DNA of 64,000 nucleotides from a virus. The translations under genes and the position numbers were made by a program. Within the stretch, counting starts at the first letter, position 1, and the number at the start of each line of letters is the position of its first letter. Of the stretch, positions 3,831-61,575 are shown piece after piece. The DNA is taken from positions 47,837 through 111,836 of IMG/VR virus record IMGVR_UViG_3300036715_002535. One strand, given 5' to 3'. Below the pieces are notes generated by a model that saw nothing but the letters and a program-made list of their open reading frames with translations, did not search any database and was not told where the DNA came from.

Positions 3831-4133
3831 GTGGCAATCTTACCTCAGAGCGCCCCTTGGTTGGAGCAGTACTTTACGAATGGTCTTAAGGTGATTCGTC
3901 TGTACGCTCGTGCTTGGAAGACCGGGGAAGATCCTTACAAGGATGGTCTCTGGAGAGTCATTCTTCAACCGGTCAGCTCAAGTGGAGTGGTGCTTGCTGA
4001 ACAGGCACAAGACTTCGAGTGGACCAAGAAGGACGACGCGATTCCCTGGGCTCAGAGCCAACTAGGTCCCTCCTTCAGACCCACCCATCAAAGAGTTCTC
4101 GGAAGGGCAGATCATGGTAACCGTCACCGATAA
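3831..4133 (+). CDS. Hypothetical protein (100 aa)
   Basis: GTG start at 3831 behind GGAG. The C-terminus overlaps the phosphatase gene by 20 bases in another frame. No recognisable domain. Confidence 0.6.
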   Translation: MAILPQSAPWLEQYFTNGLKVIRLYARAWKTGEDPYKDGLWRVILQPVSSSGVVLAEQAQDFEWTKKDDAIPWAQSQLGPSFRPTHQRVLGRADHGNRHR

Positions 4134-4605
4134 AGAAAAAGCACTGGATCACTTCGATGAGTCGGATCTTTTCATTTCGATTCTCGATCCTGGTTTCAAG
4201 AAGTTTCCTCTCAAAGGATCTAAGGAGAAGCACTTTATTGCTCGATTCGAGGATACAGAACATCCCTCCGAACTAGAATGGATGAAGATGAACCGAGAGG
4301 TTCGATCAATTCTCTCATGGGTTCAACATAAGAAACCTTCTGTCGATACGAAAATTCTTGTACATTGTCACGCTGGGGTTTCAAGATCATCCGCAATTGC
4401 GTGGCTAATCCTTATCATGCAGGGAAGAGAACCTCTTGAAGCCTTCCAATCTCTTTTCAAATCGAGATCTCAAATTTGGCCGAACTTAGTTGTGCTGGGT
4501 ATAGGTTCCAAATTCCTGAACCTCGATCCCGGTTTCATGAAGCTCGCAATTCAGATCGATGAAGAAATTCGTGAAGGACGTGGTCAACTATTTGGATACT
4601 GCTGA
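4114..4605 (+). CDS. Tyrosine/dual-specificity protein phosphatase
   Basis: The sequence HCHAGVSRSS (C85, R91) is the HCxxGxxRS phosphate-binding loop of cysteine-based phosphatases; a DP motif upstream (about residue 25) may supply the general acid. At 163 residues it is the size of a compact DSP domain. It could dephosphorylate host or phage proteins; substrates cannot be inferred. It is the last gene before the next promoter. Confidence 0.8.
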   Translation: MVTVTDKEKALDHFDESDLFISILDPGFKKFPLKGSKEKHFIARFEDTEHPSELEWMKMNREVRSILSWVQHKKPSVDTKILVHCHAGVSRSSAIAWLILIMQGREPLEAFQSLFKSRSQIWPNLVVLGIGSKFLNLDPGFMKLAIQIDEEIREGRGQLFGYC

Positions 4606-7861: not shown

Positions 7862-8530
7862 TTGGCAAAGGCAGTCGTTATCCTATCCGGCGGAATGGAC
7901 TCAGTCGTTCTAGCCTACTTCCTCAAGAACCAAGGCTACGAACTCAGTTGCCTGTCGTTCAACTACGGTCAGCGCCACGCGAAGGAACTCGGGTTCGCGG
8001 AGCAGTGCGCGAAGGATGTCCGGTCCCCTTGGCACCTGGTCGATCTCAGCACCATCCAGGGTCTTCTGCCTGGTTCATCTCTCACTGACAGCTCGATCGA
8101 GGTTCCCGAAGGGCACTTCGAAGCGGAGATCATGAAGGCCACGGTAGTGCCCAATCGGAATGCGATCATGCTTTCGATTGCGTGGGGCCACGCAGTTGCC
8201 ATCGGAGCGGATGTGGTAGCCTTTGGCGCTCACGCGGGTGACCATGCTATCTACCCTGATTGCCGTCCAGAGTTCTGGGAGAAGATCGAAGCCGGGTTCA
8301 AGTCTGGCAACGAGGGCTTTGGCAATCCAGAACTTCGACTGTACCCACCTTTCATCAAGATCACCAAGGCGGATATCACCAAGCGTGGGTACGATCTGGG
8401 TGTCAACTACGCGTACACCTGGAGCTGCTACAAGGGTGGGGAGAAGCACTGTGGCAAGTGTGGAACTTGCGTGGAGCGGAAGGAAGCCTTCGAGCTGGCA
8501 GGTGTTCCTGACCCAACGGTGTACGAATGA
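7862..8530 (+). CDS. queC: 7-cyano-7-deazaguanine synthase QueC
   Basis: TTG start behind GGAG. The ATP-pyrophosphatase loop LSGGMDSV (residues 8-15), the NYGQRH segment, VPNRN and the C-terminal zinc cluster SCYKGGEKHCGKCGTC are all present, and 222 residues is full length. QueC turns 7-carboxy-7-deazaguanine into preQ0. In phages preQ0-type bases are often put into DNA to resist restriction enzymes; host queuosine support is the other option. FolE, QueD, QueE and DpdA are not in this window. Confidence 0.95.
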   Translation: MAKAVVILSGGMDSVVLAYFLKNQGYELSCLSFNYGQRHAKELGFAEQCAKDVRSPWHLVDLSTIQGLLPGSSLTDSSIEVPEGHFEAEIMKATVVPNRNAIMLSIAWGHAVAIGADVVAFGAHAGDHAIYPDCRPEFWEKIEAGFKSGNEGFGNPELRLYPPFIKITKADITKRGYDLGVNYAYTWSCYKGGEKHCGKCGTCVERKEAFELAGVPDPTVYE

Positions 8531-9364: not shown

Positions 9365-10105
9365 ATGAAACTTGGTTACTGCAGCGATGTTCACCTTGAA
9401 CATCTGGACTCCATCAAACAGGTCCAGGAATATCTTCTTGCCTTGAAGCCAGAAGAGAAGCTGGACGTGATGGTGTTCGCTGGTGACATCTGTAACATGA
9501 TGGAGAAGCGTACCCTCTCTGCCATCATCAAGATCATCAAGATCTTCGCAACAACGGTCATCTATGTAGATGGGAATCACGAATGGTATGGAACCAGTTC
9601 GGACTTGGATCGTTCAGTACATCTTCGACACCTCCAGAACCTTGGAGTTGTAGTTCTTTCTCGTTTCACGCAACCCGAGGTTACAATCTGTGGCCAGCAT
9701 TTCTGTGGCACGATGTTCTGGTATCCCTGCAACGACCGGACACGGCTCGCGGTAGAAACCTGGTCCGACAATCGTGCTATCGACAGTTTCAAGAAATGGT
9801 GGCCGGGTGAGTACGAGATCGAACTGAAGATCTTGAACCGGATCGTCACAGACCAAAGTATTGTGGTGACCCACTGTCTTCCCTGCTGGGAAGCGATCCA
9901 CCCAACCAAGGTTGCGAAACCTGACAACCACTTCTTCGTATCCCCTGCAATTGACATCATCCAGTGGAACGAACCCAAGGCGTGGATCTATGGGCACGCT
10001 CATACTCCCAACGAACAGACCGTCTTCAAAACGAATCTCCTGAGCAATCCCTTGGGGTACCCGAGCGAAGGGCAGGAAAGAAAGATCAAGGTGATTGAGC
10101 TATGA
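9365..10105 (+). CDS. Calcineurin-like metallophosphoesterase
   Basis: All motifs of the family are visible in order: SDVH (7-10), GDI (40-42), GNHEWY (70-75), THCLP and GHAHT. 246 residues is a single catalytic domain. It probably cleaves phosphodiesters or phosphomonoesters with two metal ions; the substrate could be a nucleotide or nucleic acid. Preceded by the shortened class I promoter. Confidence 0.9.
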   Translation: MKLGYCSDVHLEHLDSIKQVQEYLLALKPEEKLDVMVFAGDICNMMEKRTLSAIIKIIKIFATTVIYVDGNHEWYGTSSDLDRSVHLRHLQNLGVVVLSRFTQPEVTICGQHFCGTMFWYPCNDRTRLAVETWSDNRAIDSFKKWWPGEYEIELKILNRIVTDQSIVVTHCLPCWEAIHPTKVAKPDNHFFVSPAIDIIQWNEPKAWIYGHAHTPNEQTVFKTNLLSNPLGYPSEGQERKIKVIEL

Positions 10106-10284
10106 AGAAGTTCAAGACCTTCGAACGATGGAGAGTATTCTCATTCAGGCCCTGAAGAATTCCGGTTGCCAAGGATCGACCGCGTCAAGAGTCTTTCGTG
10201 ATGGATCTCAAATACTCCCCTCTGGATGCGAAGTATACCTTCATGTCCATGTCAGTAGTCCACAATCCGAAAAATCTCAAGTAG
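10102..10284 (+). pseudogene. Small gene with an in-frame TGA
   Basis: The frame from ATG 10102 reads MKKFKTFERWRVFSFRP, TGA at 10153-10155, then continues with a protein-like tail ending YSPLDAKYTFMSMSVVHN and so on. A G-to-A change from TGG would explain it. The neighbouring frame is open into the hemerythrin gene, so more complex damage is possible. Confidence 0.4.
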
Positions 10285-10304
10285 AATTAAAGCTGGGGGT
10301 ATTC

Positions 10305-10694
10305 ATGGCTTTTATAGATTGGAATGACCGTTTTAGTGTAGGTCATGCTGAGATCGACAAACAGCACAAGAAACTCTTTAAGCTGGTCAACAACGTAGCT
10401 GACCTGGTGAAGATGGGAATTACTCCGGAACTGAAGAAAATTATCGCGGATCTTACCTCGTACACCCTGGAGCACTTTCGTTTCGAAGAAAAGGTCATGC
10501 GGGATTCCGGCTACAAGGATCTCGCATCGCACATAAAGAAGCATGAAGATCTTGTCAAGGAAGTCTCGGCCCTACAGCTCAAACTCAAAGCCGGTGAGCG
10601 TGTGAGCATGATGTCCGTAACAAGATTCCTAGCGGATTGGCTGACGAACCACATCATGAAAGAAGATATGGAGTACAAGCCTTTCCTGAAATAG
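10305..10694 (+). CDS. Bacteriohemerythrin (copy 1)
   Basis: 129-residue hemerythrin four-helix domain. All diiron ligands are present: GH near residue 14, KQH, HFRFE (HxxxE), HIKKH (HxxxH) and HIMKED (HxxxxD). Hemerythrins bind O2 or sense O2/NO. ATG 10305 behind GGGGG is preferred to the longer in-frame extension. Two more copies occur at 18137 and 60348. Confidence 0.9.
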   Translation: MAFIDWNDRFSVGHAEIDKQHKKLFKLVNNVADLVKMGITPELKKIIADLTSYTLEHFRFEEKVMRDSGYKDLASHIKKHEDLVKEVSALQLKLKAGERVSMMSVTRFLADWLTNHIMKEDMEYKPFLK

Positions 10695-28658: not shown

Positions 28659-28896
28659 AGACGTGGGGGGAAACCTTCATCCACCCATCGTAAGACCCAC
28701 CGAAGTTTTCACCTTGTGGATCATCTGAATCATTGACAAGCATCTTACGTAGCTTGTCCTCGAACTGTTCGAGTGAAAGCTTCTTCTGATTGTAGATCAC
28801 CACTGTCCAACCAGTAGAGCTTTCATCCGTGTAACCGGACATATCGCATTCGCAACCACAAAGTTTCTCTACCGCCTGCTTGAGCTGCTTCCTCAA
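28642..28896 (-). CDS. Hypothetical protein (84 aa)
   Basis: N-terminal helix, CGCEC pair, then a strand region with TGWTVVIYN. Overlaps the tagged gene upstream by four bases. Confidence 0.65.
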   Translation of the reverse strand: MRKQLKQAVEKLCGCECDMSGYTDESSTGWTVVIYNQKKLSLEQFEDKLRKMLVNDSDDPQGENFGGSYDGWMKVSPHVFTEED

Positions 28897-29225
28897 CCCT
28901 GGAGCATATCTACACGGATGTACTGAGGTGCCTTGGGCTTGGCAGCTTTCTTAGAAGTTTCCTTCAACCTAGCTTGCTTCGCTTTCTTGTCGTGCTGTAT
29001 TGCCATCTTGGTGTGGTGAGACATTTCTGAATCTTTACCAATTTTCTCGTAAAGGGTTGCTGCAATTCTATGTAGGTGGGCAGCTTTGACATGGTCCTCA
29101 AACGAATTCTCTTTATCGGCTTTAGTTGTAGCTTCATTCGCTTTGATGGTAGCAGCCGCAGCTTTGTCCTTGTAGGTACCAGAGGTCAATTTTTCCGGCA
29201 CGGTTGCTTTGACATGGAGCTTCAT
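28893..29225 (-). CDS. Tagged protein (110 aa), N-terminus MKLHVKATV
   Basis: Carries the shared N-terminal tag. The rest is an alanine/lysine-rich helical protein with a strongly basic tail (HDKKAKQARLKETSKKAAK), as expected for a DNA-binding or internal head protein. A class II site lies directly upstream. Confidence 0.75.
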   Translation of the reverse strand: MKLHVKATVPEKLTSGTYKDKAAAATIKANEATTKADKENSFEDHVKAAHLHRIAATLYEKIGKDSEMSHHTKMAIQHDKKAKQARLKETSKKAAKPKAPQYIRVDMLQG

Positions 29226-29241
29226 CTGCCACCTCTATTCT

Positions 29242-29267
29242 ATTCTAACCGACATTCGTGAGGTTAA
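29242..29267 (-). promoter_or_regulatory. Class II site, minus strand
   Basis: Reading the minus strand: TTAACC (29267-29262), 14 bases, TAGAAT (29247-29242), within a GGTTA/TAACC inverted repeat like those upstream of the plus-strand tagged genes. Confidence 0.6.
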
Positions 29268-29879: not shown

Positions 29880-30295
29880 AACCACTTCCAATGATGATAA
29901 TCTGGATTCTGTGCGGTCTAGGCATTGCCGCGATGAGCATGGCCATCCTTATGCTGCATCGAAATCGCCTGGTGTATCAATGGAGAACTAGAGCAAATTG
30001 TTCGTGGGCAGCTCGTTCCCAACTTGTAAGTGATCTCCTGAAACAGAACCCCTACATGTGGGCTCACTTCCCGGAAGACTTTAACTGGATCCTGCAAACA
30101 AGTAGTAAGTTCTGTTGTGAGATCTATGGTACACTTCCTTCGCACTCAGCCATGATAAATAATCTCCGTGCCTGGAACTACGAACAAGCGACTGGAGACT
30201 ACGAAGTTCAACTTGAACTCACTCTCCAAACGATTCTTGATCGAGTTCACGAGGTCGAGGACAAGTACGAGTTCCTAAAACAGAGATATCTATGA
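29876..30295 (+). CDS. Membrane-anchored protein (139 aa)
   Basis: N-terminal helix PMMIIWILCGLGIAAMSMAI anchors a helical soluble part. ATGA coupling upstream and downstream. Confidence 0.65.
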   Translation: MKPLPMMIIWILCGLGIAAMSMAILMLHRNRLVYQWRTRANCSWAARSQLVSDLLKQNPYMWAHFPEDFNWILQTSSKFCCEIYGTLPSHSAMINNLRAWNYEQATGDYEVQLELTLQTILDRVHEVEDKYEFLKQRYL

Positions 30296-30633
30296 GTTCC
30301 TATGAATGTCCGGTTTGCGAGTCCAAGGGATTCGAACCCAGTCGAACTGGTTATGGTTGCGCCTTCTGTGATGGAACTGAAGGCGGCAACCCACCTAGAA
30401 ACTCCCGCGAGGAACTGGAAGCCCTACTCCAAGAAGCCAAGATCAAACTCCACCGCTGTCAGCACGAACTGAACAATCTAGTTCAGGGAGTGAAAATGAT
30501 CGAGGAACTCCTTGAAGTTGGTTATGGCGTGAAACAGAATTTACCGGAGTTTCCTGCCCCTTGGACTTGTACGGACTGCCAACAACTGGTCCCTTCTGGT
30601 CAGTACCATGATTGTAAAGGTGGAACACTGTAA
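30292..30633 (+). CDS. Zinc-ribbon protein with helical middle (113 aa)
   Basis: CPVC...CAFC at the N-terminus and CTDC...HDC at the C-terminus flank a coiled-coil-like helix. Confidence 0.7.
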   Translation: MSSYECPVCESKGFEPSRTGYGCAFCDGTEGGNPPRNSREELEALLQEAKIKLHRCQHELNNLVQGVKMIEELLEVGYGVKQNLPEFPAPWTCTDCQQLVPSGQYHDCKGGTL

Positions 30634-30869: not shown

Positions 30870-31052
30870 TTGGAACCTACAGCACATTTCCTATTCCGCT
30901 TCCGAGCAGGCGCTGAAGTGACATCGAAACAAGATCGCAAACGCTTGACCAAGTCTTCACGAAGATTCTTTCGTAGAATGATCCGCAAGGGTGTTTTGAT
31001 CAAGGTTAATTCCTTGAAGCTTGGATCCGTACGGGGAGTGAACTTCGCATGA
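30870..31052 (+). CDS. Small basic protein, start uncertain (60 aa)
   Basis: The frame ending at 31052 (RFRAGAEVTSKQDRKRLTKS...) is protein-like but only a TTG at 30870 without Shine-Dalgarno is available. An ATG at 30830 in another frame suggests a lost or gained base. Confidence 0.45.
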   Translation: MEPTAHFLFRFRAGAEVTSKQDRKRLTKSSRRFFRRMIRKGVLIKVNSLKLGSVRGVNFA

Positions 31053-31228
31053 GCAACGATCAAAAAGAGTTTCTCCTCAAGCTAAATATTCTGCTTCGTG
31101 AGTACAATGTCACACTCGCCACGTGTAGAGATACTGACGGCATCTCCATCATTATGGGTGGAGAAGAGTTTGCTTGCCCCATGGAACTTCCCACTGAATT
31201 CGAATCACCTGTGAAGGGTCATCTGTGA
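31049..31228 (+). CDS. Small hypothetical protein (59 aa)
   Basis: ATG 31049 overlaps the upstream TGA. MSNDQKEFLLKLNILLREYN..., strand region ISIIMGGEEF, single CxM motif. Confidence 0.65.
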   Translation: MSNDQKEFLLKLNILLREYNVTLATCRDTDGISIIMGGEEFACPMELPTEFESPVKGHL

Positions 31229-31497
31229 AAGAGCTACGGAAGTCCGTTTTCATCAAATTTGATCCACTTGCACCGGACCCCACCCGAACCTTCGAGAAGA
31301 TGGAAACTGAGCACCCTGAGGTTGCCTTGAAGTGGATCGAGGAGATGGCAAGGGAAGAGGATGAACGCATCATCCAACACTGGGTACGCAAGTGTGATCG
31401 TAAATTCCGCAAGCAGGACTATCGCACTTGGAAGTCCCTCCAGAACCTACCCATCAAAGCACGTGTTATCAAGATGTCCACGGAGAAAGGATCCTAA
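31225..31497 (+). CDS. Hypothetical helical protein (90 aa)
   Basis: GTG 31225 (GTGA overlap). Charged helices. No family recognised. Confidence 0.65.
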   Translation: MKELRKSVFIKFDPLAPDPTRTFEKMETEHPEVALKWIEEMAREEDERIIQHWVRKCDRKFRKQDYRTWKSLQNLPIKARVIKMSTEKGS

Positions 31498-31772
31498 TGG
31501 TTTTTGATTCCACTATCCACAAGGACTCTCGTACCCACGAGATCGATATCCTCTTCAATGAAGAAGATACCGTGAATGTACCTGAGCTGATCAATCAGTT
31601 CCACCTTATTGCACTTCTCCTCAAACCAAATACGAAGAAATCTATTAAGTATCAAAATCAATTCGTACTGACCGTCCGCGCCAAGAAGAACTTCACCCCA
31701 GCAGCCTTTCTGTCCGAACATAAATCCTTCTTAGACGAACTTGCAGTACGTGGTCACATAAGGGAAAACTGA
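31497..31772 (+). CDS. Hypothetical protein (91 aa)
   Basis: TAATG coupling. Alternating strands and helices (IDILFNEEDTVNVPELINQF). No family recognised. Confidence 0.65.
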   Translation: MVFDSTIHKDSRTHEIDILFNEEDTVNVPELINQFHLIALLLKPNTKKSIKYQNQFVLTVRAKKNFTPAAFLSEHKSFLDELAVRGHIREN

Positions 31773-38705: not shown

Positions 38706-41531
38706 TTACAGTGCGCAGATAAACTCCAATCCCTCCGGTACAAGATCGAAGCCCAAGATCAAGCGCTGCCCAGAGGGATTGACACAGAAGTTCGAAGCAC
38801 CCAAGCTGAATACTGATCCATCCAACCTAGCACGCTGCTTGATATCCGTGACCTTCCCGCCTACATAGAGAAAGCCCTTGTGTGCCCGGTAAATCGTCTT
38901 GATGCCTACCTTGTGACCCAAGAGCCTGTCCTTCCAACCTACCGCTACCCTAACCGTACTCTTCTTAAGCAATTCCTCGTAGGTATGCACGAGGATCCTA
39001 CCATTGTCGAATTGTACCACTAACTTATCCGTGGGCTCCACGCAAACTGCCGTTTTAAGTGGCACCCTACTGAAAGCCCTCCTACCATTAGGACCTTCAT
39101 CCTGCAACCGGCATATCAGCGTGCCATCGCTCCCCAACCCCACCACCACCTGATCCCTATCTGGCACAACTAATAAACACTCCTGCTGCTCCCGCTCATA
39201 CCCTAACCGCTTACCTGGCGCATATACCGATACCGCTTCCATATACCCACCAGAGTCCACGAATGAAAAATAATCCTTACATTCCCCTACTAACTTACCC
39301 GTGAACCCTCTTCCTCGTATAGGCTGATCCTGAGATAACTCCCATCCCTTATCTGTCACCACTACCCAATTACTCCTGGACTCTAACTTCTTGAATTGTG
39401 GCAAATCACTCTTATCGCAATACTTGGTTGTACGTGGTAGGTCCGCTGCCTTATAAAACTCTACTAACTCATCCACCTGCTTCTTCAATTCAAATAGAGG
39501 AGAGGTCCCTTTCCAATAGATATACTTCTCCCTACTGCTTGCGTACTTGAGCTTCAACTGCTCCTCGTTCAATTTCAAGATCTGCGATACCTTCAATGAC
39601 AAAGCATAATCTACCATCCGCGGCACGATGAACTTCGCTAATTCTTTTTTCACCAACTCCAAGGTTTCAGAACTAAGCGCCTTCAAGAACTTGGCGTGGT
39701 TCTGAATGATCTTGATCTGCGTATCCAACTCTAACGACTCTTGTTCATAGGTGGCTACGAGATCCGTAATACGTAGATCCCATAGTCCCAACCTATGCTG
39801 TGTCCAATAAGAGAGAATGTCTACCAGCGAGCACATCTTGATTTCGAATGAGCTTTCTTCACCACTCCGTGAGGCATCCTCGTTCGATGCGCCTTTTCGT
39901 AAGGGTTTCTTAGACTCGGAGGGCACTACCACGTGGAACTGATAGCTCTCACGCTTGATCAGAGCAGGTAGGATCCTCGTGCTGAACAAACGTGGATCTT
40001 TCATCACTACCTGCACGCTGACCGCTTCCGTCGAAAAGTCCGCGAGCTCGATCATCTCTTTCTCTACGAGATCAGCCCACGCAGAGCTCAGAGTCGAATA
40101 GGTGACTAGGGGTGCGAACCCAGTGATGGTCACCTTAGACTGCTTGAGATCGAGCTCATATGCGCAGCAGTACGCTAGAGAGCCGACCCCAGTGCGGTAT
40201 ATCTCGGCTATCTCGTCGTGCCCACTCAAGCAATAACACTTATTTTCGAGCTGAGGCCCCTCCATCAACGCAAAATAACTTTTTTCAGTTTTACTTATCT
40301 CACGGGAGTGGTTCGGGGAAACTTCTAAATTCCCTGGAACCCCATCTTCCACATCAACAACACCGGAAACCGGTGTGGAGGGATCATTATCGGGGGTAGG
40401 GTTACCCTTAGTCTTCTTACCACCAATAGGGGACTTAGAGTCATCCAGGGTGCTAATGCGTTCCTTTGCGAGGATCTTTTCGTACTGATCATTGATATAG
40501 GCTTGGGATGTTTTGGCTACGGACAGGATATGATGGGAGGGGATACTTCCAGAGAAGCCCATGGAGATGCCAGAGTAGCCATTGACAAGGATCAGGGGGA
40601 GGAGGGAGGAGAGGACTTCAGGTTCCTTTTCTTTGCCATCAAAGTTGGGTACAAAGTGGAGATATTTTTTATCCAGGAAGTGGGAGAAGCCCAGGTCAGT
40701 GATGCCGGATTCGGTATAGCGATAGGCAGCTGGGGGGTGGCCTTTGATAGATCCATAGTTGCCCACGCTTTGGATAAGGGGGTATTTGATAGTCCAGGGG
40801 GTGGCAAGGGCAACGAGGGCTTCGTATGCGGAGGAGTTATGGGTTACGAGGAGTTGGTCACCGCTTACGATGAGGGCATTTTCATAGTCATTGACGGTAA
40901 AGTCATACATAGGTTCAGGGGAGGGGAGTTCTTCAATTTGGATTGACTTGATATAGAGGGGATGGGGGAGGGAGGATTTATCTAGGACAAGTTTATCGGA
41001 TTGAAGGAGGGAGGGGTAGTGTTGGATAACTTGGTAGGGTTTCAGGTCTTCAGCTTTTATCCAGCGTTGATTTACAAAGAAGGGGTGATTAGAGGTGCAG
41101 CGTACAGTTTGCCCATTACTTAGGTGCAGGTTGTAGATTTTGGTTGAGTATTGACCAATGCGGAAGGAGTGGGCAATAGAGGGAACTAAGCGACCTTCTT
41201 TGTTGAGGGATAGGACTTCAAGTTGGGGGGTATGGGATTCGATGAGTTGGGGGATAGTTTTGGGGATTCCATCCAGGCTGAACAGTTTGGTGTTACCCTC
41301 GAGGCAATCTCCATGGGGATTGTAGCTTCCGATTACATGTCCAATGATCTTCGCGCACTTGAGGGAGCCACGATCTGGTTTGAGGCCCATTTCGTAGGCG
41401 GACCAGAGGATGCGTCGTTGTACAGGTTTGAGGCCATCACGGATATCGGGGAAGGCGCGATTGAGGGAGATATAGTGGCCATACTCCAGGAGGTTGGTTT
41501 TGATCAGTTGTTCAGCGACTACGTGGGACAT
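38706..41531 (-). CDS. Type II DNA topoisomerase A subunit (GyrA/ParC/gp52-like) with in-frame mini-intein
   Basis: 941-residue precursor. Exteins: FPDIRDGLKPVQRRILWSAY and GSYNPHGD up to residue 75, then SSAYEALVALA from 233. The catalytic tyrosine is Tyr272 in AAYRYTES, and LILVNGYSGISMGFSGSIPS marks the core. A Lys/Pro/Ser-rich insert (about residues 380-430) and a beta-pinwheel-like C-terminal domain follow. The spliced product would be 784 residues. The subunit breaks and rejoins DNA; an ATPase partner is not in the window. GAGG precedes ATG 41531. Confidence 0.9.
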   Translation of the reverse strand: MSHVVAEQLIKTNLLEYGHYISLNRAFPDIRDGLKPVQRRILWSAYEMGLKPDRGSLKCAKIIGHVIGSYNPHGDCLEGNTKLFSLDGIPKTIPQLIESHTPQLEVLSLNKEGRLVPSIAHSFRIGQYSTKIYNLHLSNGQTVRCTSNHPFFVNQRWIKAEDLKPYQVIQHYPSLLQSDKLVLDKSSLPHPLYIKSIQIEELPSPEPMYDFTVNDYENALIVSGDQLLVTHNSSAYEALVALATPWTIKYPLIQSVGNYGSIKGHPPAAYRYTESGITDLGFSHFLDKKYLHFVPNFDGKEKEPEVLSSLLPLILVNGYSGISMGFSGSIPSHHILSVAKTSQAYINDQYEKILAKERISTLDDSKSPIGGKKTKGNPTPDNDPSTPVSGVVDVEDGVPGNLEVSPNHSREISKTEKSYFALMEGPQLENKCYCLSGHDEIAEIYRTGVGSLAYCCAYELDLKQSKVTITGFAPLVTYSTLSSAWADLVEKEMIELADFSTEAVSVQVVMKDPRLFSTRILPALIKRESYQFHVVVPSESKKPLRKGASNEDASRSGEESSFEIKMCSLVDILSYWTQHRLGLWDLRITDLVATYEQESLELDTQIKIIQNHAKFLKALSSETLELVKKELAKFIVPRMVDYALSLKVSQILKLNEEQLKLKYASSREKYIYWKGTSPLFELKKQVDELVEFYKAADLPRTTKYCDKSDLPQFKKLESRSNWVVVTDKGWELSQDQPIRGRGFTGKLVGECKDYFSFVDSGGYMEAVSVYAPGKRLGYEREQQECLLVVPDRDQVVVGLGSDGTLICRLQDEGPNGRRAFSRVPLKTAVCVEPTDKLVVQFDNGRILVHTYEELLKKSTVRVAVGWKDRLLGHKVGIKTIYRAHKGFLYVGGKVTDIKQRARLDGSVFSLGASNFCVNPSGQRLILGFDLVPEGLEFICAL
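40836..41306 (-). other. Mini-intein in the topoisomerase A subunit (157 aa)
   Basis: Residues 76-232. Block A starts with Cys (CLEGNTKLFSLDG), block B has TSNHPFF (TxxH), block F is PMYDFTVNDYENALIVSG and block G ends LLVTHN, followed by Ser +1. No endonuclease domain fits in the length. It is inserted between D and S of the PHGD-S motif, just before the serine that is the main quinolone-resistance position of GyrA. Confidence 0.9.
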
Positions 41532-41673: not shown

Positions 41674-42159
41674 ATGACCAAGATGCGTATTCAGGCAGCA
41701 GTAGTCAAGACCAAAACATTCAACTACAAGGATGAGGAACAGGAGGCAAAGGCTTGGGCTACGAAGATGAAGGAAAAGGGTAACGTTGTCTTCGAGGATG
41801 ACAAGGGTTCCGATACCTACTGCTTGTACGCTGCACCTTCCAAGAAGGATATTCAGGATTGGTGCGAGGAGCAGGAGCAGGAGGTCAAGTTAGTTTCTTT
41901 CACGGCTAGGGTCCAGGTTGCCTCCAACACCTCCATCTGGGCAATCTTACGGCAGGATGCTTTCGGGCAGGGGGATGCCATTACTCTAGTAACTGCGTTG
42001 AACGAGCAGGAAGCATTTTCAATCTACGCTATTGAGAGTGCAGGAAGCATAGCGCCCTCAAACGTTTCTGAGGAACAAAACAGGGCGGTGCTGGAAGAAT
42101 TTTATGGGGACTACAAGGATGGTTACTACAAAGTTCTACCAACGGAAATGATTGGGTAG
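41674..42159 (+). CDS. Tagged protein (161 aa), N-terminus MTKMRIQAAV
   Basis: Reference member of the tagged set: a short basic strand M-x-K-[LMI]-[RHK]-[IV]-x-A followed by an unrelated sequence. The rest is alpha/beta and acidic at the end. GGAGGG precedes ATG 41674; class II site upstream. Function unknown. Confidence 0.72.
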   Translation: MTKMRIQAAVVKTKTFNYKDEEQEAKAWATKMKEKGNVVFEDDKGSDTYCLYAAPSKKDIQDWCEEQEQEVKLVSFTARVQVASNTSIWAILRQDAFGQGDAITLVTALNEQEAFSIYAIESAGSIAPSNVSEEQNRAVLEEFYGDYKDGYYKVLPTEMIG

Positions 42160-42542: not shown

Positions 42543-42570
42543 GTAACCCTTTTGAAAGTGGGGTTACAAT
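42543..42570 (+). promoter_or_regulatory. Class II site
   Basis: GTAACC (42543-42548), 16 bases (CTTTTGAAAGTGGGGT), TACAAT (42565-42570). The GTAACCC / GGGTTAC inverted repeat spans it. Confidence 0.75.
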
Positions 42571-42575
42571 TACTT

Positions 42576-43028
42576 ATGGTGAAGCTACGTATTGCATCCC
42601 AAGGTGAGATTAATAGGATCATGTGGACCCTCGGTCATCTGCGGAAGGCAGTGAGGGGGCTTCACAAGTACGAGTCGTCTGTCAATGTGGAGGGGAAGGT
42701 AGCTCTCAAGGCAGCGATGGGAGTTTTGTTGGAAGTAATCAAGCAGGAAGAGGGTAAGATCGAGAAATTAAAGTTCGAGGGTGAAGAACATCCTCGAACC
42801 TGGAGCATTCGGAAAACGGTAAAGAGTCTGAGTTGGACCCTTCGGAAGTTGAAGTTTGCTTCCAACGATCTACAGATCTATCTGGGTCCACACCTTCTGG
42901 GTAAGACCACGATAGGTAAGGATGCCATTCTGCGTGCGAAGGCCATCATAGATCAAGCTGTGAATGAGATGCAGGAGAAGGTTAAGGCTCTCGAGGGTGA
43001 GCTGTGGAGAGAAGTCTTTCCTGATTAG
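42576..43028 (+). CDS. Tagged protein (150 aa), N-terminus MVKLRIASQ
   Basis: After the tag the protein is entirely helical and basic (coiled-coil-like segments around residues 45-75 and 110-145). Start codon lies only five bases after the -10-like box, so initiation may use a very short or leaderless transcript. Confidence 0.72.
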   Translation: MVKLRIASQGEINRIMWTLGHLRKAVRGLHKYESSVNVEGKVALKAAMGVLLEVIKQEEGKIEKLKFEGEEHPRTWSIRKTVKSLSWTLRKLKFASNDLQIYLGPHLLGKTTIGKDAILRAKAIIDQAVNEMQEKVKALEGELWREVFPD

Positions 43029-43057: not shown

Positions 43058-43093
43058 GTAATCGTTCTTCAGTAGCTGAAAGTGGGGTTACTA
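43058..43093 (+). promoter_or_regulatory. Class II site, variant
   Basis: Only the right arm is intact: GAAAGTGGGGTTACTAT (to 43093). The left arm is GTAATC (43058-43063) and too far away. Confidence 0.55.
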
Positions 43094-43099
43094 TTACTT

Positions 43100-43666
43100 A
43101 TGGTGAAGCTACGTATTCAAGCAAGTGTCAAGGCGAACATGTGGGATGATGCTTATCACCCAAGTAAGCTTGGTCCCTCTTTGACCATCAACCCTTGGCA
43201 GGAAGATCAGTTCTGGGTGGCGCCAAAGGATCCAGGTATTCCCGAGGAAACGAAGCAGCATCTGAGGGAGTGGTTGCAATACAACAACAAGAGTTTGACA
43301 GGCGAGGATCTCAATTTCTTGATGCGTAAGTACTCTTACTCCGGGACGATGTTTCGAGGGGTGGGGTTTCAGACCATGGAAGAGATGGAGGAGTTTCTAT
43401 CCACGTTAGGGAATGAGAGGCATCCTACCTCGTGGTCCAAGTCTTTTGAGGTAGCCAAGGAGTTCGCTTCGGAGGGGCAGACTCAATCCTCCCTTCCCAA
43501 TCATTGGTTGGTTCTGAAGTATAAGGGCAAGGCATTCGACTTGCACAAAATGCATTTGAAGCTCTCTCCACCCAGTCAGAAGAAGAAAGATCGTGGGGTG
43601 GTGAGGGAGCAGGAACTAGTGATCCCTGCAGGATCCTACAGCTTCGAAGTAGTGGATAAGGGTTAG
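43100..43666 (+). CDS. Tagged putative mono-ADP-ribosyltransferase (188 aa)
   Basis: N-terminus MVKLRIQASV is the tag. The rest shows the R-S-E triad of arginine-type ADP-ribosyltransferases: MFRGVGF (Arg86), TSWSKS (Ser111-115) and REQELVIPAG (Glu170-x-Glu172). Such enzymes move ADP-ribose from NAD to host proteins; T4 Alt is packaged in the head and injected, ModA and ModB are made early. Overall similarity to any of these cannot be judged here. Class II variant upstream. Confidence 0.72.
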   Translation: MVKLRIQASVKANMWDDAYHPSKLGPSLTINPWQEDQFWVAPKDPGIPEETKQHLREWLQYNNKSLTGEDLNFLMRKYSYSGTMFRGVGFQTMEEMEEFLSTLGNERHPTSWSKSFEVAKEFASEGQTQSSLPNHWLVLKYKGKAFDLHKMHLKLSPPSQKKKDRGVVREQELVIPAGSYSFEVVDKG

Positions 43667-43743: not shown

Positions 43744-43771
43744 GTAACCCTTTTGAAAGTGGGGTTACAAT
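43744..43771 (+). promoter_or_regulatory. Class II site
   Basis: GTAACC (43744-43749), 16 bases, TACAAT (43766-43771); the sequence through the start codon is nearly identical to 42543-42590. Confidence 0.75.
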
Positions 43772-43776
43772 TACTT

Positions 43777-44367
43777 ATGGTGAAGCTACGTATCAAAGCC
43801 GGTCTATCTAATAGGGTCTACCATTTCACAACTCTTTCCTCGAAAGCATCTCAATTAGTTGTGGTGGATGTTCAGCCAGTACATCGTGGGTTCATTCACT
43901 TTGATGTTCCTAGTTTGATGAAGAAGTTCGAGGACTATGGACGGGTGCTCATTGTCTATAATGGGGCAGAGTTAGGTTACGAGGATAGTCCAAATACCAT
44001 TCAAGAGTGGTATTTGGAGGAGGGTATGAACGAAGAGGTTCATTTAGAGTTTAAAGATAAGGCTTACGGTTTTCTTCGTGGGGCAATGGATACTGGAGTT
44101 GCTGACGAGAACATCGTTGGAGCAATCAAGGTAATGCTCGAAGAAGACTTATCAGATAGCAGGGAATTATCTACCGAGATGCAAGAGCAGTTTGGTTTGA
44201 GTGAAGATACAGCTATCAGCATTCCGGATGATCTGATAGATGCCTTGAAGGATTTCAATGGGGCAGATATTTGCGGTGGTGGAGATAACGATTGTTTAAG
44301 AGAAGTGGAGTTGCTAGCTGAAGGTGCTGGCTTAAGATTCAATCGTTTGTATCGATTTGTTTATTAA
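43777..44367 (+). CDS. Tagged protein with hydrolase-like core (196 aa), N-terminus MVKLRIKAG
   Basis: After the tag, VVVDVQPVHRGFIHF and VLIVYNGAELG look like Rossmann-type strands, with YGFLRGAMDTGV in the middle and ICGGGDNDCLREVELLAEGA near the end. The layout faintly recalls isochorismatase-like hydrolases; no firm family. Confidence 0.72.
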   Translation: MVKLRIKAGLSNRVYHFTTLSSKASQLVVVDVQPVHRGFIHFDVPSLMKKFEDYGRVLIVYNGAELGYEDSPNTIQEWYLEEGMNEEVHLEFKDKAYGFLRGAMDTGVADENIVGAIKVMLEEDLSDSRELSTEMQEQFGLSEDTAISIPDDLIDALKDFNGADICGGGDNDCLREVELLAEGAGLRFNRLYRFVY

Positions 44368-45775: not shown

Positions 45776-45800
45776 TTAACCTTGAAAGAGGGGTTACAAT
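45776..45800 (+). promoter_or_regulatory. Class II site
   Basis: TTAACC (45776-45781), 13 bases, TACAAT (45795-45800), then three ATAG units and a GGAGG ribosome site. Confidence 0.65.
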
Positions 45801-45823: not shown

Positions 45824-46414
45824 ATGGGTAAGCTCAATTGTAGCAGGGAAGAAGGACCGGGTGTAAAGAAGCTTCGTATCCGTGCTGGTGTGCCTAAGAA
45901 GGCGGCACTCGTGGGCATGCCAGTCCCAGGCTGGTTCATCTTCTACAATCTGGGAAGCGGTAACTGGGAGGTCGAGGCAGCGCCCAATCCAAATACTGCG
46001 AGCCGGGAAGAACTGCAGAAGGTGATGGAAGACTTCAAGGAGTTTGGGTACAATGACAATATCAAACGGCACGGTCATAGCCGTACCTTCTATGTAGAGA
46101 TTACACCAGAGATGGTTCAGGATTGGGCTTCGGAAGGTGTGGAGAGCTGGGAAGATGATATGGTCACAGATGCCATTCAAGGACTTCCAAACACGGATAT
46201 TCGAAGAATTTTAAAGCAGAAGGGCTCCAAGAAGGCATCTGAGCTCAGGATTGTATCTGGGAAGAAGGACCAGCCCAAGAAGCGTGAAACCTTTGAGGAA
46301 GCAGTCGAGCGCGGGTACAAGGAATCCAAAGAGGTATTCGAGAAGCTTCAAAAGAAGCCGGTCCTGGTATCCGATGGGTCTACTACTTCGGACTTGGGAT
46401 CTCAGCAATCCTAA
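45824..46414 (+). CDS. Tagged protein (196 aa), tag at residues 14-23
   Basis: MGKLNCSREEGPGV precedes KKLRIRAGV, so the tag is displaced inward; a start at a later codon is not available. The body has a strand-rich domain (GWFIFYNLGSGNWEVE) and a long charged helix. Function unknown. Confidence 0.72.
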   Translation: MGKLNCSREEGPGVKKLRIRAGVPKKAALVGMPVPGWFIFYNLGSGNWEVEAAPNPNTASREELQKVMEDFKEFGYNDNIKRHGHSRTFYVEITPEMVQDWASEGVESWEDDMVTDAIQGLPNTDIRRILKQKGSKKASELRIVSGKKDQPKKRETFEEAVERGYKESKEVFEKLQKKPVLVSDGSTTSDLGSQQS

Positions 46415-48449: not shown

Positions 48450-48476
48450 GTAACCTTCGATGAAGAGGGTTACAAT
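48450..48476 (+). promoter_or_regulatory. Class II site
   Basis: GTAACC (48450-48455), 15 bases, TACAAT (48471-48476). Controls a four-gene tagged cluster. Confidence 0.72.
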
Positions 48477-48494: not shown

Positions 48495-48728
48495 ATGGTC
48501 AAGCTTCGTATTCAGGCAAACGTACCTGGATTCATGGAAGATGATGCGATCATCCGTGATTTTGTGGGTACTGGCTTGAACGATCGTATGTTATATGAGC
48601 ACATCGTACAGCAGACTGCGAGCCATCAGATTGCCAGGTACGTGGACAAACGCCTGAAGGAGTTGAAAGAGACCCTTGGAGAAGAAGGACTTTGGAACCG
48701 TCATCTACAATTGAAAGGGACGAAATGA
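48495..48728 (+). CDS. Tagged protein (77 aa), N-terminus MVKLRIQANV
   Basis: ATG 48495 behind TTGGAG. Helical after the tag. First of four linked genes. Confidence 0.72.
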   Translation: MVKLRIQANVPGFMEDDAIIRDFVGTGLNDRMLYEHIVQQTASHQIARYVDKRLKELKETLGEEGLWNRHLQLKGTK

Positions 48729-48972: not shown

Positions 48973-49158
48973 ATGGGTAAGCTACGTATCCGAGCCACCT
49001 TCAAGGCATTGAAGTTGCCCAAACGACTTCTGGAAGAACAGAAGAAGATGGAGAAGGACAACTCCGACATGCATTGGGTGCAGGATAAGATGAAGAACGA
49101 TACAACTCTGGAACAGCAGGAAGAAGCTACTCCAGGGGACAACGAAGGAACAGATTGA
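48973..49158 (+). CDS. Tagged protein (61 aa), N-terminus MGKLRIRATF
   Basis: AAGGAG precedes the ATG. After the tag a basic helix, then an acidic disordered tail (QQEEATPGDNEGTD). Confidence 0.7.
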   Translation: MGKLRIRATFKALKLPKRLLEEQKKMEKDNSDMHWVQDKMKNDTTLEQQEEATPGDNEGTD

Positions 49159-49850
49159 TGAAACTCCACATCAAAGCATCTCTCAAGCGTGCAGTTCTCA
49201 CGATCACCACGCTTGAGGATGTGCTGATGGCGCGTCAGTTCATCACAGAACGGGATGGTCAGTTCCAGGAAGGTGGAGCGATCATTGCACCTGAAATCAT
49301 CAAGCAGATGCAGGATCAAGGTTTGATCCACTTGCGTTGGCAGGGGAATGATTACTCTAACTGGGAGCTTACTCCTGAGGGATTGAAGGCCAAGGAAGCT
49401 CTGACCAAGAAAGTGAAGTACAAGAAAGGTGATGAGATCTGGTACTTCCAGCCCACCCAATTTCTAGATATGCCACGTGTACCCAATTCCTTTTCAGGTA
49501 TCTACGTCGCTTGCATCCTCTGTACAGTCAAGAGTTGCGGTATGAAGCAGATGACCCTTGAGCGCAAGGTGGGTGGCAAGATGATGCAATACTTCATCAA
49601 GCCAGAACTTTACAAGAAATGGGCGGTACCTGCTACTCAGTTTCATTCCGAAGCTGAAGTAGTTGCCTATGGGACAAAGCTCAGTGCAGATGAACTAGAT
49701 CGTGTGATAGAGTGGGACGAATCCCGTTGGCGAAATGCTCAGAAGAAGTACGCAGAAGATCCCAAGGGTCTAGCGTTTGAACAGAAGGTTTACGATGATC
49801 ATAGGACACTCCTTGATCTGGTGAAGCCCTTCGCAAGGATCGTAGACTAA
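49158..49850 (+). CDS. Tagged protein (230 aa), N-terminus MKLHIKASLK
   Basis: Largest tagged member. Residues 15-75 look like a winged helix (AIIAPEIIKQMQDQGLIHLR, LTPEGLKAKEAL), then a second domain with CILCTVKSCGM. Possibly DNA-binding. Overlaps the upstream stop. Confidence 0.72.
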   Translation: MKLHIKASLKRAVLTITTLEDVLMARQFITERDGQFQEGGAIIAPEIIKQMQDQGLIHLRWQGNDYSNWELTPEGLKAKEALTKKVKYKKGDEIWYFQPTQFLDMPRVPNSFSGIYVACILCTVKSCGMKQMTLERKVGGKMMQYFIKPELYKKWAVPATQFHSEAEVVAYGTKLSADELDRVIEWDESRWRNAQKKYAEDPKGLAFEQKVYDDHRTLLDLVKPFARIVD

Positions 49851-51786: not shown

Positions 51787-52103
51787 TAGTTCAACTCGTT
51801 TTCCGCGAGATTGATCAGTCCTTGAAGAAGTTCCGGATCCTGATGGTGAAGATATTCGACGACCTTCTTGGACTTCTCCAGTTCTTTAACAAGGATTGTT
51901 ATCTCGCTCAGATCCTTCGATGAGGTCATTAGACGAACTGCGTAGAAGATATCCGCAACTTCCTTCTCGAGATCTTTACGGTTCTCCCAACTGTCGTACC
52001 CATGCCGAAGGATCTTACCAGCGGCCTGGACAGCCTCCCCACACTCCTCAATGAAGAGTGCTAGTCGTTCAGCTTCTGCAGGAGATAGCTTGTTGGAGAA
52101 CAT
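51786..52103 (-). CDS. MazG-like nucleotide pyrophosphohydrolase (105 aa)
   Basis: LFIEECGEAVQAAGKILRHG ... DLEKEVADIFYAVRLM shows the ExxE...ExxD magnesium sites of the all-alpha NTP pyrophosphatase fold. It may lower (p)ppGpp or clean up modified nucleotides. One-base overlap with the upstream deoxyhypusine-synthase-like gene. Confidence 0.82.
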   Translation of the reverse strand: MFSNKLSPAEAERLALFIEECGEAVQAAGKILRHGYDSWENRKDLEKEVADIFYAVRLMTSSKDLSEITILVKELEKSKKVVEYLHHQDPELLQGLINLAENELN

Positions 52104-53233
52104 TATCGCCTCAGAACGATTGCAGCAATGTCAGGAAAGTGTTCCGTGTAGTCCCCGAAGATCTGAATCCCAAAGGAGTCCGGCTCGACCTTGCTCCAGG
52201 TAATCTTCTCCTTAAAACCTGCGCCAGAATACGATCCAAAGCTCATAGGTGAAGAGTGGATTTCGATGAAGCCCGCCCAAGGCTTAATGAATGCTTCTTG
52301 AGCTTTGATAGAAAGGTCAGCTAAATAGTCTTTCTTGAGGTGCGGAACTACGCAGATTGGGAAGTCTCCTGCAATGCCACCACCCAGCTGTAAGAAAGCC
52401 AAAGAGGTAGTTTGAGTAGTTTCTTGATACCACTCAGCAAGCTTGTGCATGTAGCGGAAAGAGTGAGCAACCACTTCGGGACTGATGGGGTGGTCTTGAG
52501 CATACTGAGAGAGGAAAGGATGTTTGCCATTGTAGGAATAGTAAGCGAAGATGTTGCCCATTGTGGAATCTTCGACTCCACCCACAATGATCTCAACTTG
52601 ATTCTTCCAGGCCCAGTAGAGCCAGCAGTCGTGGAGTTCTTCCGTTCCATGGTACTTGGACTCGATCTCCTCCAAGACCTTGAAGAAGTATTCGTGCCAG
52701 AAAGGCGCCTTGTAAGGTTTCTCTGAAACTTGATGAAACTTGGCATCTTCTTCGCGCCAGAACTTCTCGAAGAGGGGCAGAAGTACGCGAGTAGATTCAT
52801 CTTCAGGCAGGAAGGTATCGGTGATACGGCGGAAGCCCTTATGATCGAGTTCCTTCTCCTGCTCGGAGGTCAGTTCAACGTAGTCAGGAATGTAAGCGTA
52901 GTGCTCGTTTGCGACCAGACGATAGAGGGATTCTTCCAGATTGGCGCCCGTGACCGAGATGCCTGAGATCTTGCCTGCGCGGATCAGATCACTGATGATG
53001 ACCCCTTGCTGGAACGAAGAACCCGCACCAGACATGGACAGGAAGATCTTGCCGCGATGGACGCAGTGGTCACGAAGCCAGAGGCCAGCGTCTATCGTCT
53101 TGCCACCATTACAGTGACGCTTGGTATGTACGAGATAGTTCGTGACTGGAGTGAGATGAGATGGGATATACTTACGTTCTCCCAGGAAGATCTTCTTCCG
53201 GAGTTCCGGGGAAAGGGTATCGAGCTTGTTCAT
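52103..53233 (-). CDS. Deoxyhypusine/homospermidine synthase-like protein (376 aa)
   Basis: FLSMSGAGSSFQQGVIISDL, IRAGKISGISVTGANLEESL, RITDTFLPEDES, LGGGIAGDFPICVVPHLKKD and SGAGFKEKITWSKV follow the DHS family in order. The final WSKV corresponds to the WGKI that carries the catalytic lysine. These enzymes move an aminobutyl group from spermidine to eIF5A or to putrescine; bacteria lack eIF5A, so a polyamine or another acceptor is likely. ATG 53233 behind GGGAG. Confidence 0.85.
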   Translation of the reverse strand: MNKLDTLSPELRKKIFLGERKYIPSHLTPVTNYLVHTKRHCNGGKTIDAGLWLRDHCVHRGKIFLSMSGAGSSFQQGVIISDLIRAGKISGISVTGANLEESLYRLVANEHYAYIPDYVELTSEQEKELDHKGFRRITDTFLPEDESTRVLLPLFEKFWREEDAKFHQVSEKPYKAPFWHEYFFKVLEEIESKYHGTEELHDCWLYWAWKNQVEIIVGGVEDSTMGNIFAYYSYNGKHPFLSQYAQDHPISPEVVAHSFRYMHKLAEWYQETTQTTSLAFLQLGGGIAGDFPICVVPHLKKDYLADLSIKAQEAFIKPWAGFIEIHSSPMSFGSYSGAGFKEKITWSKVEPDSFGIQIFGDYTEHFPDIAAIVLRR

Positions 53234-53276
53234 TGAGAACTCCCAGGTTGACTTTCGTGAATGGATTGGATACCCA

Positions 53277-54254
53277 TCAGTATGGTTTGTCCGACTTTCC
53301 AGCAAATCCAAGAGCAGGGGCATCAGTTGGATTAAACTTCTTCTTGTGCATGGACTTCATACGATCGACTGTTTCGTTGATGTCTTTACCGTAGCACTTG
53401 ATGGAGATGATCATTTCCTTGAGGTGGGGAATGGTCAGGCCATCGGAGAACTCAACCCACTGATCCAACTCTTCTGGAGTGAGGGAAGGTTCCTTCTTTT
53501 CGAGGTAGAAGCGGCGAGCAGCGTCAGACGGCATCCCAATGTAACGAATGAGATCAAATCGACTGGGACGGTCAATAAAGCGAGCATCAAGCCGTTCTGG
53601 GTAGTTGGTGGTTGCTAGGTGAACGATGTTGTTCACCTGGGACTCTCCATCGAGTAGGGAGAGGAAACCATTCTCATCGTACCTACGGACCAAGCTATCC
53701 AGATCCTCGAAGATGGCAATAACCGGGCGGTTGGGCTCGATCTTGCGAATCATCTTCAGACCATCATCACCCAGTCCAGGGTGTTCGACCATGAGAACAA
53801 TACCATCCAAATCTTTGATTACTGACCGAATGATTAGTTGGATCGTGGAAGTCTTACCAGAACCCGGAGGACCCCACATGAGAATTCCACGCTTGTGTAG
53901 GAATCCACGTTTTAGGAACTCATCCTTGAGAGCCCAGAACTGTGTGAAGTCCTCAAGAATTCTTTTGGAAGAATCGTCTGGTAGAACTAAAAGGTCATCC
54001 GTGATAAGGGGGATGGCTTCGAGATAGGGACCGGTGTTGGATGATTGTGCCCGGTAGCATTGAGAAGGAAGCGATTGAAAGGTCTTTCCGATGCCCCAGT
54101 AATTGTCACCGGTGTTGGCCCAGCAACTAAGGTTCTCCACTTTTTTGGCATTAGATGTATCAGACCCCTCGATGGGAGTGCAATCTGGAGGTGGATGAGG
54201 TAAGGGGGATTCCACCTGAGTGCCGATCACTTCGGAAATGTTTGGTTCACTCAT
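53277..54254 (-). CDS. AAA+ ATPase (BCS1-like type)
   Basis: Walker A GPPGSGKTS (128-136), Walker B VIAIFEDLDSL (178-188), sensor 1 LATTNYPERLD and the arginine finger region RPSRFD. The N-terminal 100 residues are unique and Cys/Pro-rich. Single AAA domain, no protease. Remodels a protein or DNA complex; the target is unknown. Confidence 0.87.
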   Translation of the reverse strand: MSEPNISEVIGTQVESPLPHPPPDCTPIEGSDTSNAKKVENLSCWANTGDNYWGIGKTFQSLPSQCYRAQSSNTGPYLEAIPLITDDLLVLPDDSSKRILEDFTQFWALKDEFLKRGFLHKRGILMWGPPGSGKTSTIQLIIRSVIKDLDGIVLMVEHPGLGDDGLKMIRKIEPNRPVIAIFEDLDSLVRRYDENGFLSLLDGESQVNNIVHLATTNYPERLDARFIDRPSRFDLIRYIGMPSDAARRFYLEKKEPSLTPEELDQWVEFSDGLTIPHLKEMIISIKCYGKDINETVDRMKSMHKKKFNPTDAPALGFAGKSDKPY

Positions 54255-54665: not shown

Positions 54666-54911
54666 ATGAAGCACAAGATCGCACGTCGCCCACGTCCCAT
54701 GAAGCAGATCATTCTGAATGTGATCGACGATGAAGATTCTCTTGAGAGAATGTTGAACGCAATCAAAGAGTGTTCCGACCCTGGACATTCCTTCGATGTG
54801 GTAGTCGATCCAGATGGAACAGAGGAGGAAGGTGGCAATCTATCCTTCGGGATTGATGGTGATGGTGCCTTCCGACTCGTAGACATCAAGATCAAAGAGG
54901 TGGTAGCATGA
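54666..54911 (+). CDS. Hypothetical protein, possible divergent tag (81 aa)
   Basis: N-terminus MKHKIARRPRPMK is tag-like. Acidic alpha/beta remainder. First of two genes behind a class II site. Confidence 0.65.
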   Translation: MKHKIARRPRPMKQIILNVIDDEDSLERMLNAIKECSDPGHSFDVVVDPDGTEEEGGNLSFGIDGDGAFRLVDIKIKEVVA

Positions 54912-55201
54912 AGCTCAGAGTCAAGGCCAACCTACGAAAAGCTACCCCAGTAGAGTTCTCCCGCGAATACGAAGTCGAGACTGGCTCCTACGAGCGAGAT
55001 GAGGACTCTGGAGATCTTTATGAGATCAAGCTAGACCTGCAGTTCACTGCGTTCCAGGAAGCAGATGGCAAGTGGTACGCAGATGTTGAAGGCGGCTACC
55101 ACTCTGACTACGACTTCGGAAGCATCGTTGAAGAGTACAAGGGTACCTTTGCCCAGGATCTTCAGGAAGCTTTCCCCGGCGCCGTAATCGTCTGGGCTTA
55201 A
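54908..55201 (+). CDS. Tagged protein (97 aa), N-terminus MKLRVKANLR
   Basis: After the tag a beta-rich acidic domain. ATGA coupling upstream; tail to tail with the minus-strand gene. Confidence 0.72.
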   Translation: MKLRVKANLRKATPVEFSREYEVETGSYERDEDSGDLYEIKLDLQFTAFQEADGKWYADVEGGYHSDYDFGSIVEEYKGTFAQDLQEAFPGAVIVWA

Positions 55202-61266: not shown

Positions 61267-61575
61267 ATGGCTAAGCTAAAGATCATCGCAAGAATCCTAG
61301 AGCCTTCAGACTATCTCTGGCACGCTTACGATTCGGATCAACCGATGTCTCTGACAACACGCAATGGTCACAAGACCATTTCGATGCGGAAGGGAACCAA
61401 ATACGGAATTAGACCATCAACTAGTGGTTCTGCAATCCGAATGATAACGGAGATGTATGGACCAACCATCGTCTTTACCCTCACGATGGATGAGAAGCGT
61501 GCCCTTCTAGCTAAGTCCGTTCCCGCTCCCAAAGGGACTCTTCAGCAGGTGGCCCGGGTTCGAGCAGGTAAATGA
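61267..61575 (+). CDS. Tagged protein (102 aa), N-terminus MAKLKIIARI
   Basis: Variant of the tag. Alpha/beta remainder with a basic end. Behind the sequence GTAATATAATTG, which has a -10-like box but no GTAACC arm. Confidence 0.68.
   Translation: MAKLKIIARILEPSDYLWHAYDSDQPMSLTTRNGHKTISMRKGTKYGIRPSTSGSAIRMITEMYGPTIVFTLTMDEKRALLAKSVPAPKGTLQQVARVRAGK

What the first reader, a model, noticed from the sequence alone, without database searches (positions are those of the whole stretch)
43100..43666. Tagged mono-ADP-ribosyltransferase, a possible Alt-like injected effector
The protein has an R-S-E type triad (Arg86, Ser111-115, Glu170-x-Glu172) behind the tag. T4 Alt is an ADP-ribosyltransferase carried in the head and injected. 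A transferase bearing the tag fits the idea that the tag directs effectors into virions.
Basis: partly seen in the sequence, partly recalled or inferred. Interest (0 to 1): 0.72.

Follow-up and report, generated by a model that had tools for sequence, protein, structure and literature searches.

The report
Tagged Mod-type ADP-ribosyltransferase in jumbo phage
This phage gene encodes an enzyme of the same family as the T4 host-takeover enzymes ModA and ModB, and it begins with a short peptide that the phage also puts on at least 15 other proteins, which may be an address label that loads them into the virus particle.

Summary
Window 43100-43666 encodes a 188-residue mono-ADP-ribosyltransferase (ART) with the full R-S-ExE triad (R86, S111, E170/E172). 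It is a Mod-type ART (T4 ModA/ModB), not Alt-like: a Mod profile scores 24.4 bits (best of 20,000 shuffles 8.2), while an Alt catalytic-domain profile gives -2.5 bits. The "tag" is real. M-x-K-L-[RH]-[IV]-x-A-x-[LVYF] starts 14 ORFs in the 111.8-kb contig (null 0.05), 16 with two variants. The bodies are otherwise nearly unrelated; they include this ART, a GNAT-type acetyltransferase and a KMPT-N domain protein. New here: the inverted-repeat element TAACC-N-GGTTA[CG]AAT occurs six times in the contig, each 32-47 nt upstream of a tagged gene; TATAATTGA occurs four times, each serving a tagged gene. So the tag belongs to a co-regulated set of modular, probably host-directed genes. Virion delivery is plausible but unproven. 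The tag has the length and position of T4's capsid-targeting sequence, and [IV]-x-A|small resembles prohead-protease sites (the phage encodes such a protease). But Mod enzymes are normally made in the cell, no identified structural protein carries the tag, and the relatives examined lack it. Verdict: ART confirmed, Alt-like rejected, injection open.

The parts
43100..43666 (+). Tagged Mod-type mono-ADP-ribosyltransferase, 188 aa; R86-G87, S111-W-S113, E170-Q-E172
43100..43126 (+). N-terminal tag MVKLRIQAS of the ART; hypothetical cleavage after Ala8
   Evidence: cleavage is inference
43067..43099 (+). Upstream cassette of the ART gene: right half (TGAAAGTGGGGTTACtATTACTT) shared with the 42576 and 43777 genes; left half replaced by another inverted repeat (CTTCAG...CTGAAAG)
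42544..42570 (+). Inverted-repeat element TAACC-N-GGTTACAAT upstream of tagged gene 42576
42576..43028 (+). Tagged gene, variant tag MVKLRIASQ, 150 aa, unknown function
43745..43771 (+). Inverted-repeat element upstream of tagged gene 43777
43777..44367 (+). Tagged gene MVKLRIKAG, 196 aa; a weak homologue in a 634-kb phage lacks the tag
41674..42159 (+). Tagged gene MTKMRIQAA, 161 aa; upstream GGTTATAAT at 41648
45777..45800 (+). Inverted-repeat element upstream of gene 45824
45824..46414 (+). Gene with the tag at an internal in-frame start (KKLRIRAG at 45863)
48451..48476 (+). Inverted-repeat element upstream of the 48495 gene cluster
48495..48728 (+). Tagged gene MVKLRIQAN, 77 aa
48973..49158 (+). 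Tagged gene MGKLRIRAT, 61 aa, probably in the same operon
49158..49850 (+). Tagged gene MKLHIKAS, 230 aa
54642..54650 (+). TATAATTGA element upstream of the 54660-54911 gene, which overlaps the start of tagged gene 54908
54908..55201 (+). Tagged gene MKLRVKAN, 97 aa
61243..61251 (+). TATAATTGA element upstream of tagged gene 61267
61267..61575 (+). Tagged gene MAKLKIIAR, 102 aa, KMPT-N domain (PF20294, E=4.5e-5, below the curated cut-off); the homologue in phage Motura lies next to the portal gene
29242..29266 (-). Inverted-repeat element upstream of tagged gene 29225
28893..29225 (-). Tagged gene MKLHVKAT, 110 aa
18517..18918 (-). Tagged gene MKIHVIAK, 133 aa

Best explanation
The gene encodes a Mod-family mono-ADP-ribosyltransferase that takes ADP-ribose (or an NAD-capped RNA) from NAD and puts it on host proteins, probably on arginine, most likely parts of the transcription or translation machinery. 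Family and catalytic residues are shown by sequence; catalysis and targets are inferred from T4 ModA and ModB. Its first 8-9 residues are a tag shared by at least 16 otherwise largely unrelated proteins of this phage, made from co-regulated promoter-plus-tag cassettes (tag and shared upstream elements shown; promoter role inferred). The best guess for the tag, marked as inference, is a capsid-targeting propeptide: it draws the protein into the prohead and is clipped after [IV]-x-A by the phage's prohead protease, so that the enzyme is injected with the DNA.
For: ART: PHROG 832 match; Mod profile 24.4 bits, E=1.5e-6 in the contig, beats 20,000 shuffles; invariant R, G, S, E, E; AlphaFold2 with 19 sequences gives pTM 0.57 and its first four Foldseek PDB matches are ART structures, led by Vis bound to agmatine; five viral models at E<0.001. 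Tag: 14 strict copies, null 0.05; synonymous codons differ between dispersed copies, so the peptide is what is kept. Co-regulation: 6 of 6 inverted-repeat elements and 4 of 4 TATAATTGA elements serve tagged genes. Targeting idea: T4's capsid-targeting sequence is the first 10 residues, is clipped by the prohead protease, and sits on otherwise divergent proteins (PMC9026906); this contig encodes a head maturation protease; the relative of a tagged KMPT-N protein is the gene after the portal gene in phage Motura; one tagged protein has a GNAT-type relative; phage ARTs are often packaged (PMC9503650).
Against: The T4 Mod enzymes, the closest family, are early gene products and not packaged. Terminase, portal and protease of this phage do not carry the tag. 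Five other jumbo-phage records with related terminases lack it. Conservation runs one or two residues beyond the presumed cut (A-x-[LVYF]), which a simple propeptide would not need. The major capsid gene was not found in the contig, so the cleavage motif could not be checked. The structural model is of moderate confidence (pLDDT 61) and its single best PDB match is not significant on its own (E=0.065).
Confidence: 0.47

Rival explanations
1. Mod-type ART made in the infected cell from its own promoter, like ModA and ModB. The tag is not a virion signal but serves the whole co-regulated set in another way, such as docking to a phage scaffold or compartment, protection, or efficient translation start.
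For: The Mod family is not packaged in T4 (PMC10468400). The promoter-like elements GGTTA[CGT]AAT and TATAATTGA look like host-type -10 boxes and are nearly specific to tagged genes. Tagged genes lie scattered outside the structural block.
Against: Does not by itself explain why the peptide, rather than the DNA, is kept across largely unrelated proteins. T4 supplies a known precedent for short N-terminal virion tags, and none was found here for the alternatives.
Confidence: 0.42
2. Alt-like injected ART, in the sense of kinship with T4 Alt.
For: Same RSE clade; PHROG 832 pools Alt and Mod proteins.
Against: Alt catalytic-domain profile scores -2.5 bits and ranks the protein amid its shuffles; BLASTP with Alt E=15 against 6e-4 with ModB; no Alt N-terminal part; the PHROG match lies in the part of the profile that Mod proteins occupy.
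Confidence: 0.03
3. Tag and upstream element are just the trace of recent tandem duplication of a gene start, without any function of the peptide.
For: Three neighbouring genes (42576, 43100, 43777) share nearly identical DNA across the start.
Against: Other copies are scattered over 106 kb on both strands, with different synonymous codons and near-unrelated bodies; the elements vary in loop length but keep both arms.
Confidence: 0.05

Closest known systems
T4 ModA / ModB (Mod family of RSE-clade ARTs)
   Same: Size, single domain, RG motif (ModB R73-G74), S-[FW]-S followed by A-x-x-F-A, E-x-E followed by IPxG; catalytic residues invariant
   Different: About 20% identity; N-terminal tag absent from Mods; longer segment before the RG strand; non-T4 jumbo phage
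T4 Alt
   Same: RSE-clade ART; the idea of an injected enzyme with a clipped N-terminus
   Different: No profile similarity detected; lacks the roughly 400-residue N-terminal part; different phage lineage
T4 capsid-targeting sequence of internal proteins IPI-IPIII
   Same: Short N-terminal peptide on otherwise divergent proteins; possible protease site ending in a fixed residue
   Different: Sequence unrelated; predicted cut after Ala, not Glu; packaging and cleavage not shown here
Promoter-stem-loop cassettes (PeSLs) of T4-type phages (from memory)
   Same: Repeated promoter plus inverted repeat in front of variable small genes
   Different: Here the cassette extends into the coding region and carries the tag

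Membership tests
Mod family (RSE-clade ART) | Catalytic R, S and E-x-E at the right spacing | tested here: met
   R86, S111, E170, E172 invariant in A6
Mod family (RSE-clade ART) | Significant match to a profile of known Mods | tested here: met
   24.4 bits, E=1.5e-6; best of 20,000 shuffles 8.2
Mod family (RSE-clade ART) | Single-domain protein of about 200 residues | tested here: met
   188 aa against 200 and 207
Mod family (RSE-clade ART) | ART fold with NAD pocket | tested here: inconclusive
   Model pTM 0.57; top PDB matches are ARTs but E=0.065 or worse
Mod family (RSE-clade ART) | NAD-dependent transfer to protein | not testable with these tools
   needs biochemistry
Alt family | Match to the Alt catalytic domain | tested here: not met
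   -2.5 bits, rank 8021 in its shuffles
Alt family | Large N-terminal part before the ART domain | tested here: not met
   ORF is 188 aa; T4 Alt 682
Alt family | Present in virions and injected | not testable with these tools
   no proteomics
Capsid-targeting sequence | Same short N-terminus on several otherwise different proteins | tested here: met
   16 genes with near-unrelated bodies
Capsid-targeting sequence | Cleavage by the phage's prohead protease | not testable with these tools
   protease present; specificity unknown
Capsid-targeting sequence | Sends a protein into the capsid | not testable with these tools
   needs a fusion experiment

The most novel reading that the evidence does not exclude
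A jumbo phage uses a new 8-9-residue N-terminal signal, unrelated to T4's, built into mobile promoter-plus-tag cassettes, to load at least 16 different effectors (an ART, an acetyltransferase, a KMPT-N protein and many unknowns) into its capsid and inject them.
Probability: 0.38. Interest if true: 0.85.

Novelty: new variant of a known kind. Interest (0 to 1): 0.6.

Why it matters
Short capsid-targeting peptides are well worked out for T4 but not for most other large phages. A tag readable from sequence would allow the injected effectors of this phage, mostly unknown proteins, to be listed at once, and could serve to load foreign proteins into phage heads. The tag-specific upstream elements give a second, independent way to find members of the set.

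Tried and rejected
Kinship with Alt: rejected by profile. Homologues of the ART by direct search: none in phages, viral contigs or GTDB genomes; L005 was a chance 8-mer match. Single-sequence AlphaFold2: useless (pLDDT 35). PHROG 832 search of 28 jumbo-phage records: nothing, but the controls also rang nowhere, so uninformative. Tag in other phages: a degenerate DNA pattern gave 14 scattered single hits without a second tagged gene in the loci read; five other records at background for the strict tag, though NCTB had 8 hits against 1.9 expected with a looser pattern. Known RNA families in the window: none. An ordinary sigma-70 promoter with a fixed -35 box: spacing between the arms varies, and a consensus scan found no excess, so not supported. 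Major capsid protein in the contig: not found with JA11, NCTB or Aura proteins. The first shuffle test failed for a command-line reason and was redone.

Full report
Setting. The window is part (47837-111836) of a 111,836-base virus record. The record encodes a terminase, a portal and a head maturation protease of a jumbo-phage lineage. The nearest relatives listed, Dickeya phage JA11, phage NCTB, Erwinia phages and Pseudomonas phage Aura among them, are only about 25-37% identical in these proteins.

The enzyme. The ORF at 43100-43666 is as described. Pfam and NCBIfam give nothing relevant, but PHROG 832 matches with E=9.6e-6. That family mixes Alt and Mod proteins, so I built separate profiles. 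Seven Mod proteins from Straboviridae give 24.4 bits (E=1.5e-6 against all contig ORFs; best of 20,000 shuffles 8.2), while six Alt catalytic domains give -2.5 bits. Pairwise BLASTP agrees: ModB 6e-4, ModA 7e-4, Alt 15. In the 19-sequence alignment the residues R86, G87, S111, A119, F122, E170 and E172 are invariant. R86-G87 corresponds to R73-G74 of ModB, where R73A inactivates the enzyme (PMC10468400).

Structure. With the 19-sequence alignment AlphaFold2 gives pLDDT 61 and pTM 0.57, with much of the core at about 70-80 and residues 1-43, tag included, at low confidence. The top four PDB matches are ADP-ribosyltransferases, individually weak (best E=0.065). Five viral models match at E<0.001. 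This supports the ART fold without proving the NAD pocket.

The tag. The consensus is M-(x)-K-L-[RH]-[IV]-x-A-x-[LVYF]. K is fixed in 16 of 16, L in 14, A in 15. The 14 strict copies compare with 0.05 expected. The dispersed copies use different synonymous codons, so selection acts on the peptide. All-against-all comparison of the bodies finds only marginal similarity (best E=0.003). A homologue of the 43777 protein in a 634-kb phage lacks the tag, and Mod proteins lack it, so in these cases it is an added N-terminus.

Company. A tagged protein at contig 30973-31716 has a 42%-identical relative that Pfam recognises as a GNAT acetyltransferase (E=2.6e-5). The tagged 61267 protein matches KMPT-N (E=4.5e-5, below the curated cut-off), and its Motura relative (8.6e-20) is the gene directly after the portal gene. 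ART and GNAT domains are among those reported in proteins that some phages inject (PMC7824862).

Co-regulation. TAACC-N(3-14)-GGTTA-N-AAT occurs six times on the two strands of the contig and never in 30 Markov shuffles. All six lie 32-47 nt before a tagged gene. TATAATTGA occurs four times (null 0.13), three directly before tagged genes and one before a gene that overlaps a tagged one. The ART gene has a variant: the right half of the cassette is kept, the left half is a different inverted repeat. Arm spacing varies, so the element is not a simple dimer site with a fixed -35 box; I call it promoter-like by inference only.

What the tag does. Known precedent: T4's capsid-targeting sequence, ten N-terminal residues that load otherwise divergent proteins into the head and are removed by the prohead protease (PMC9026906). 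The SPN3US protease cuts after A-x-E with serine preferred next (PMC10052503); herpesvirus assemblin cuts after [VLI]-x-A before serine (from memory). Here [IV]-x-A|[NSTG] would be an analogous site. In NCTB two adjacent genes between protease and tail sheath genes start MKIISISA and MKIVSISA, but they look like paralogues, so this is only suggestive. Against: Mods are not packaged, no identified structural protein bears the tag, relatives lack the strict tag, and conservation continues past the presumed cut. I put packaging at a little under even odds.

Verdict. An ordinary enzyme family in an unusual setting. The ART is a new, divergent Mod-type member; the tag-plus-element set is the part that could be new.

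Noticed in passing
window 38706-41531 (-): Type II topoisomerase A subunit with an intein splicing domain (PF14890, E=1.3e-12) inserted near its start.
   Followed up: partly
window 10095-10694 (+) and contig 29932-30315 (L003:9932-10315): Two hemerythrin-like genes in one phage contig (PF01814, E=2e-16 and 1.7e-13).
   Followed up: partly
window 7862-8530 (+): QueC-like gene (E=9e-63), as in phages that make deazaguanine-modified DNA.
   Followed up: no
window 52103-53323 (-): Deoxyhypusine synthase family protein (PF01916, E=3e-25), odd in a phage.
   Followed up: no
window 53277-54254 (-): AAA+ ATPase closest to Cdc48/VCP-type ATPases.
   Followed up: partly
window 2052-2444 (-): By reading only: short release-factor-like protein with a GGQ motif.
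   Followed up: no
window 4114-4605 (+): Dual-specificity phosphatase-like protein (PF00782, E=2e-7, below the curated cut-off).
   Followed up: no
phage NCTB, L006:20214-23183: Two neighbouring head-region genes start with MKIISISA and MKIVSISA; looser N-terminal [IVLM]-x-[IVL]-x-A hits in NCTB are 8 against 1.9 expected.
   Followed up: partly
contig 30973-31716 (L003:10973-11716): Tagged protein related to a GNAT acetyltransferase of a 485-kb uncultured phage.
   Followed up: yes
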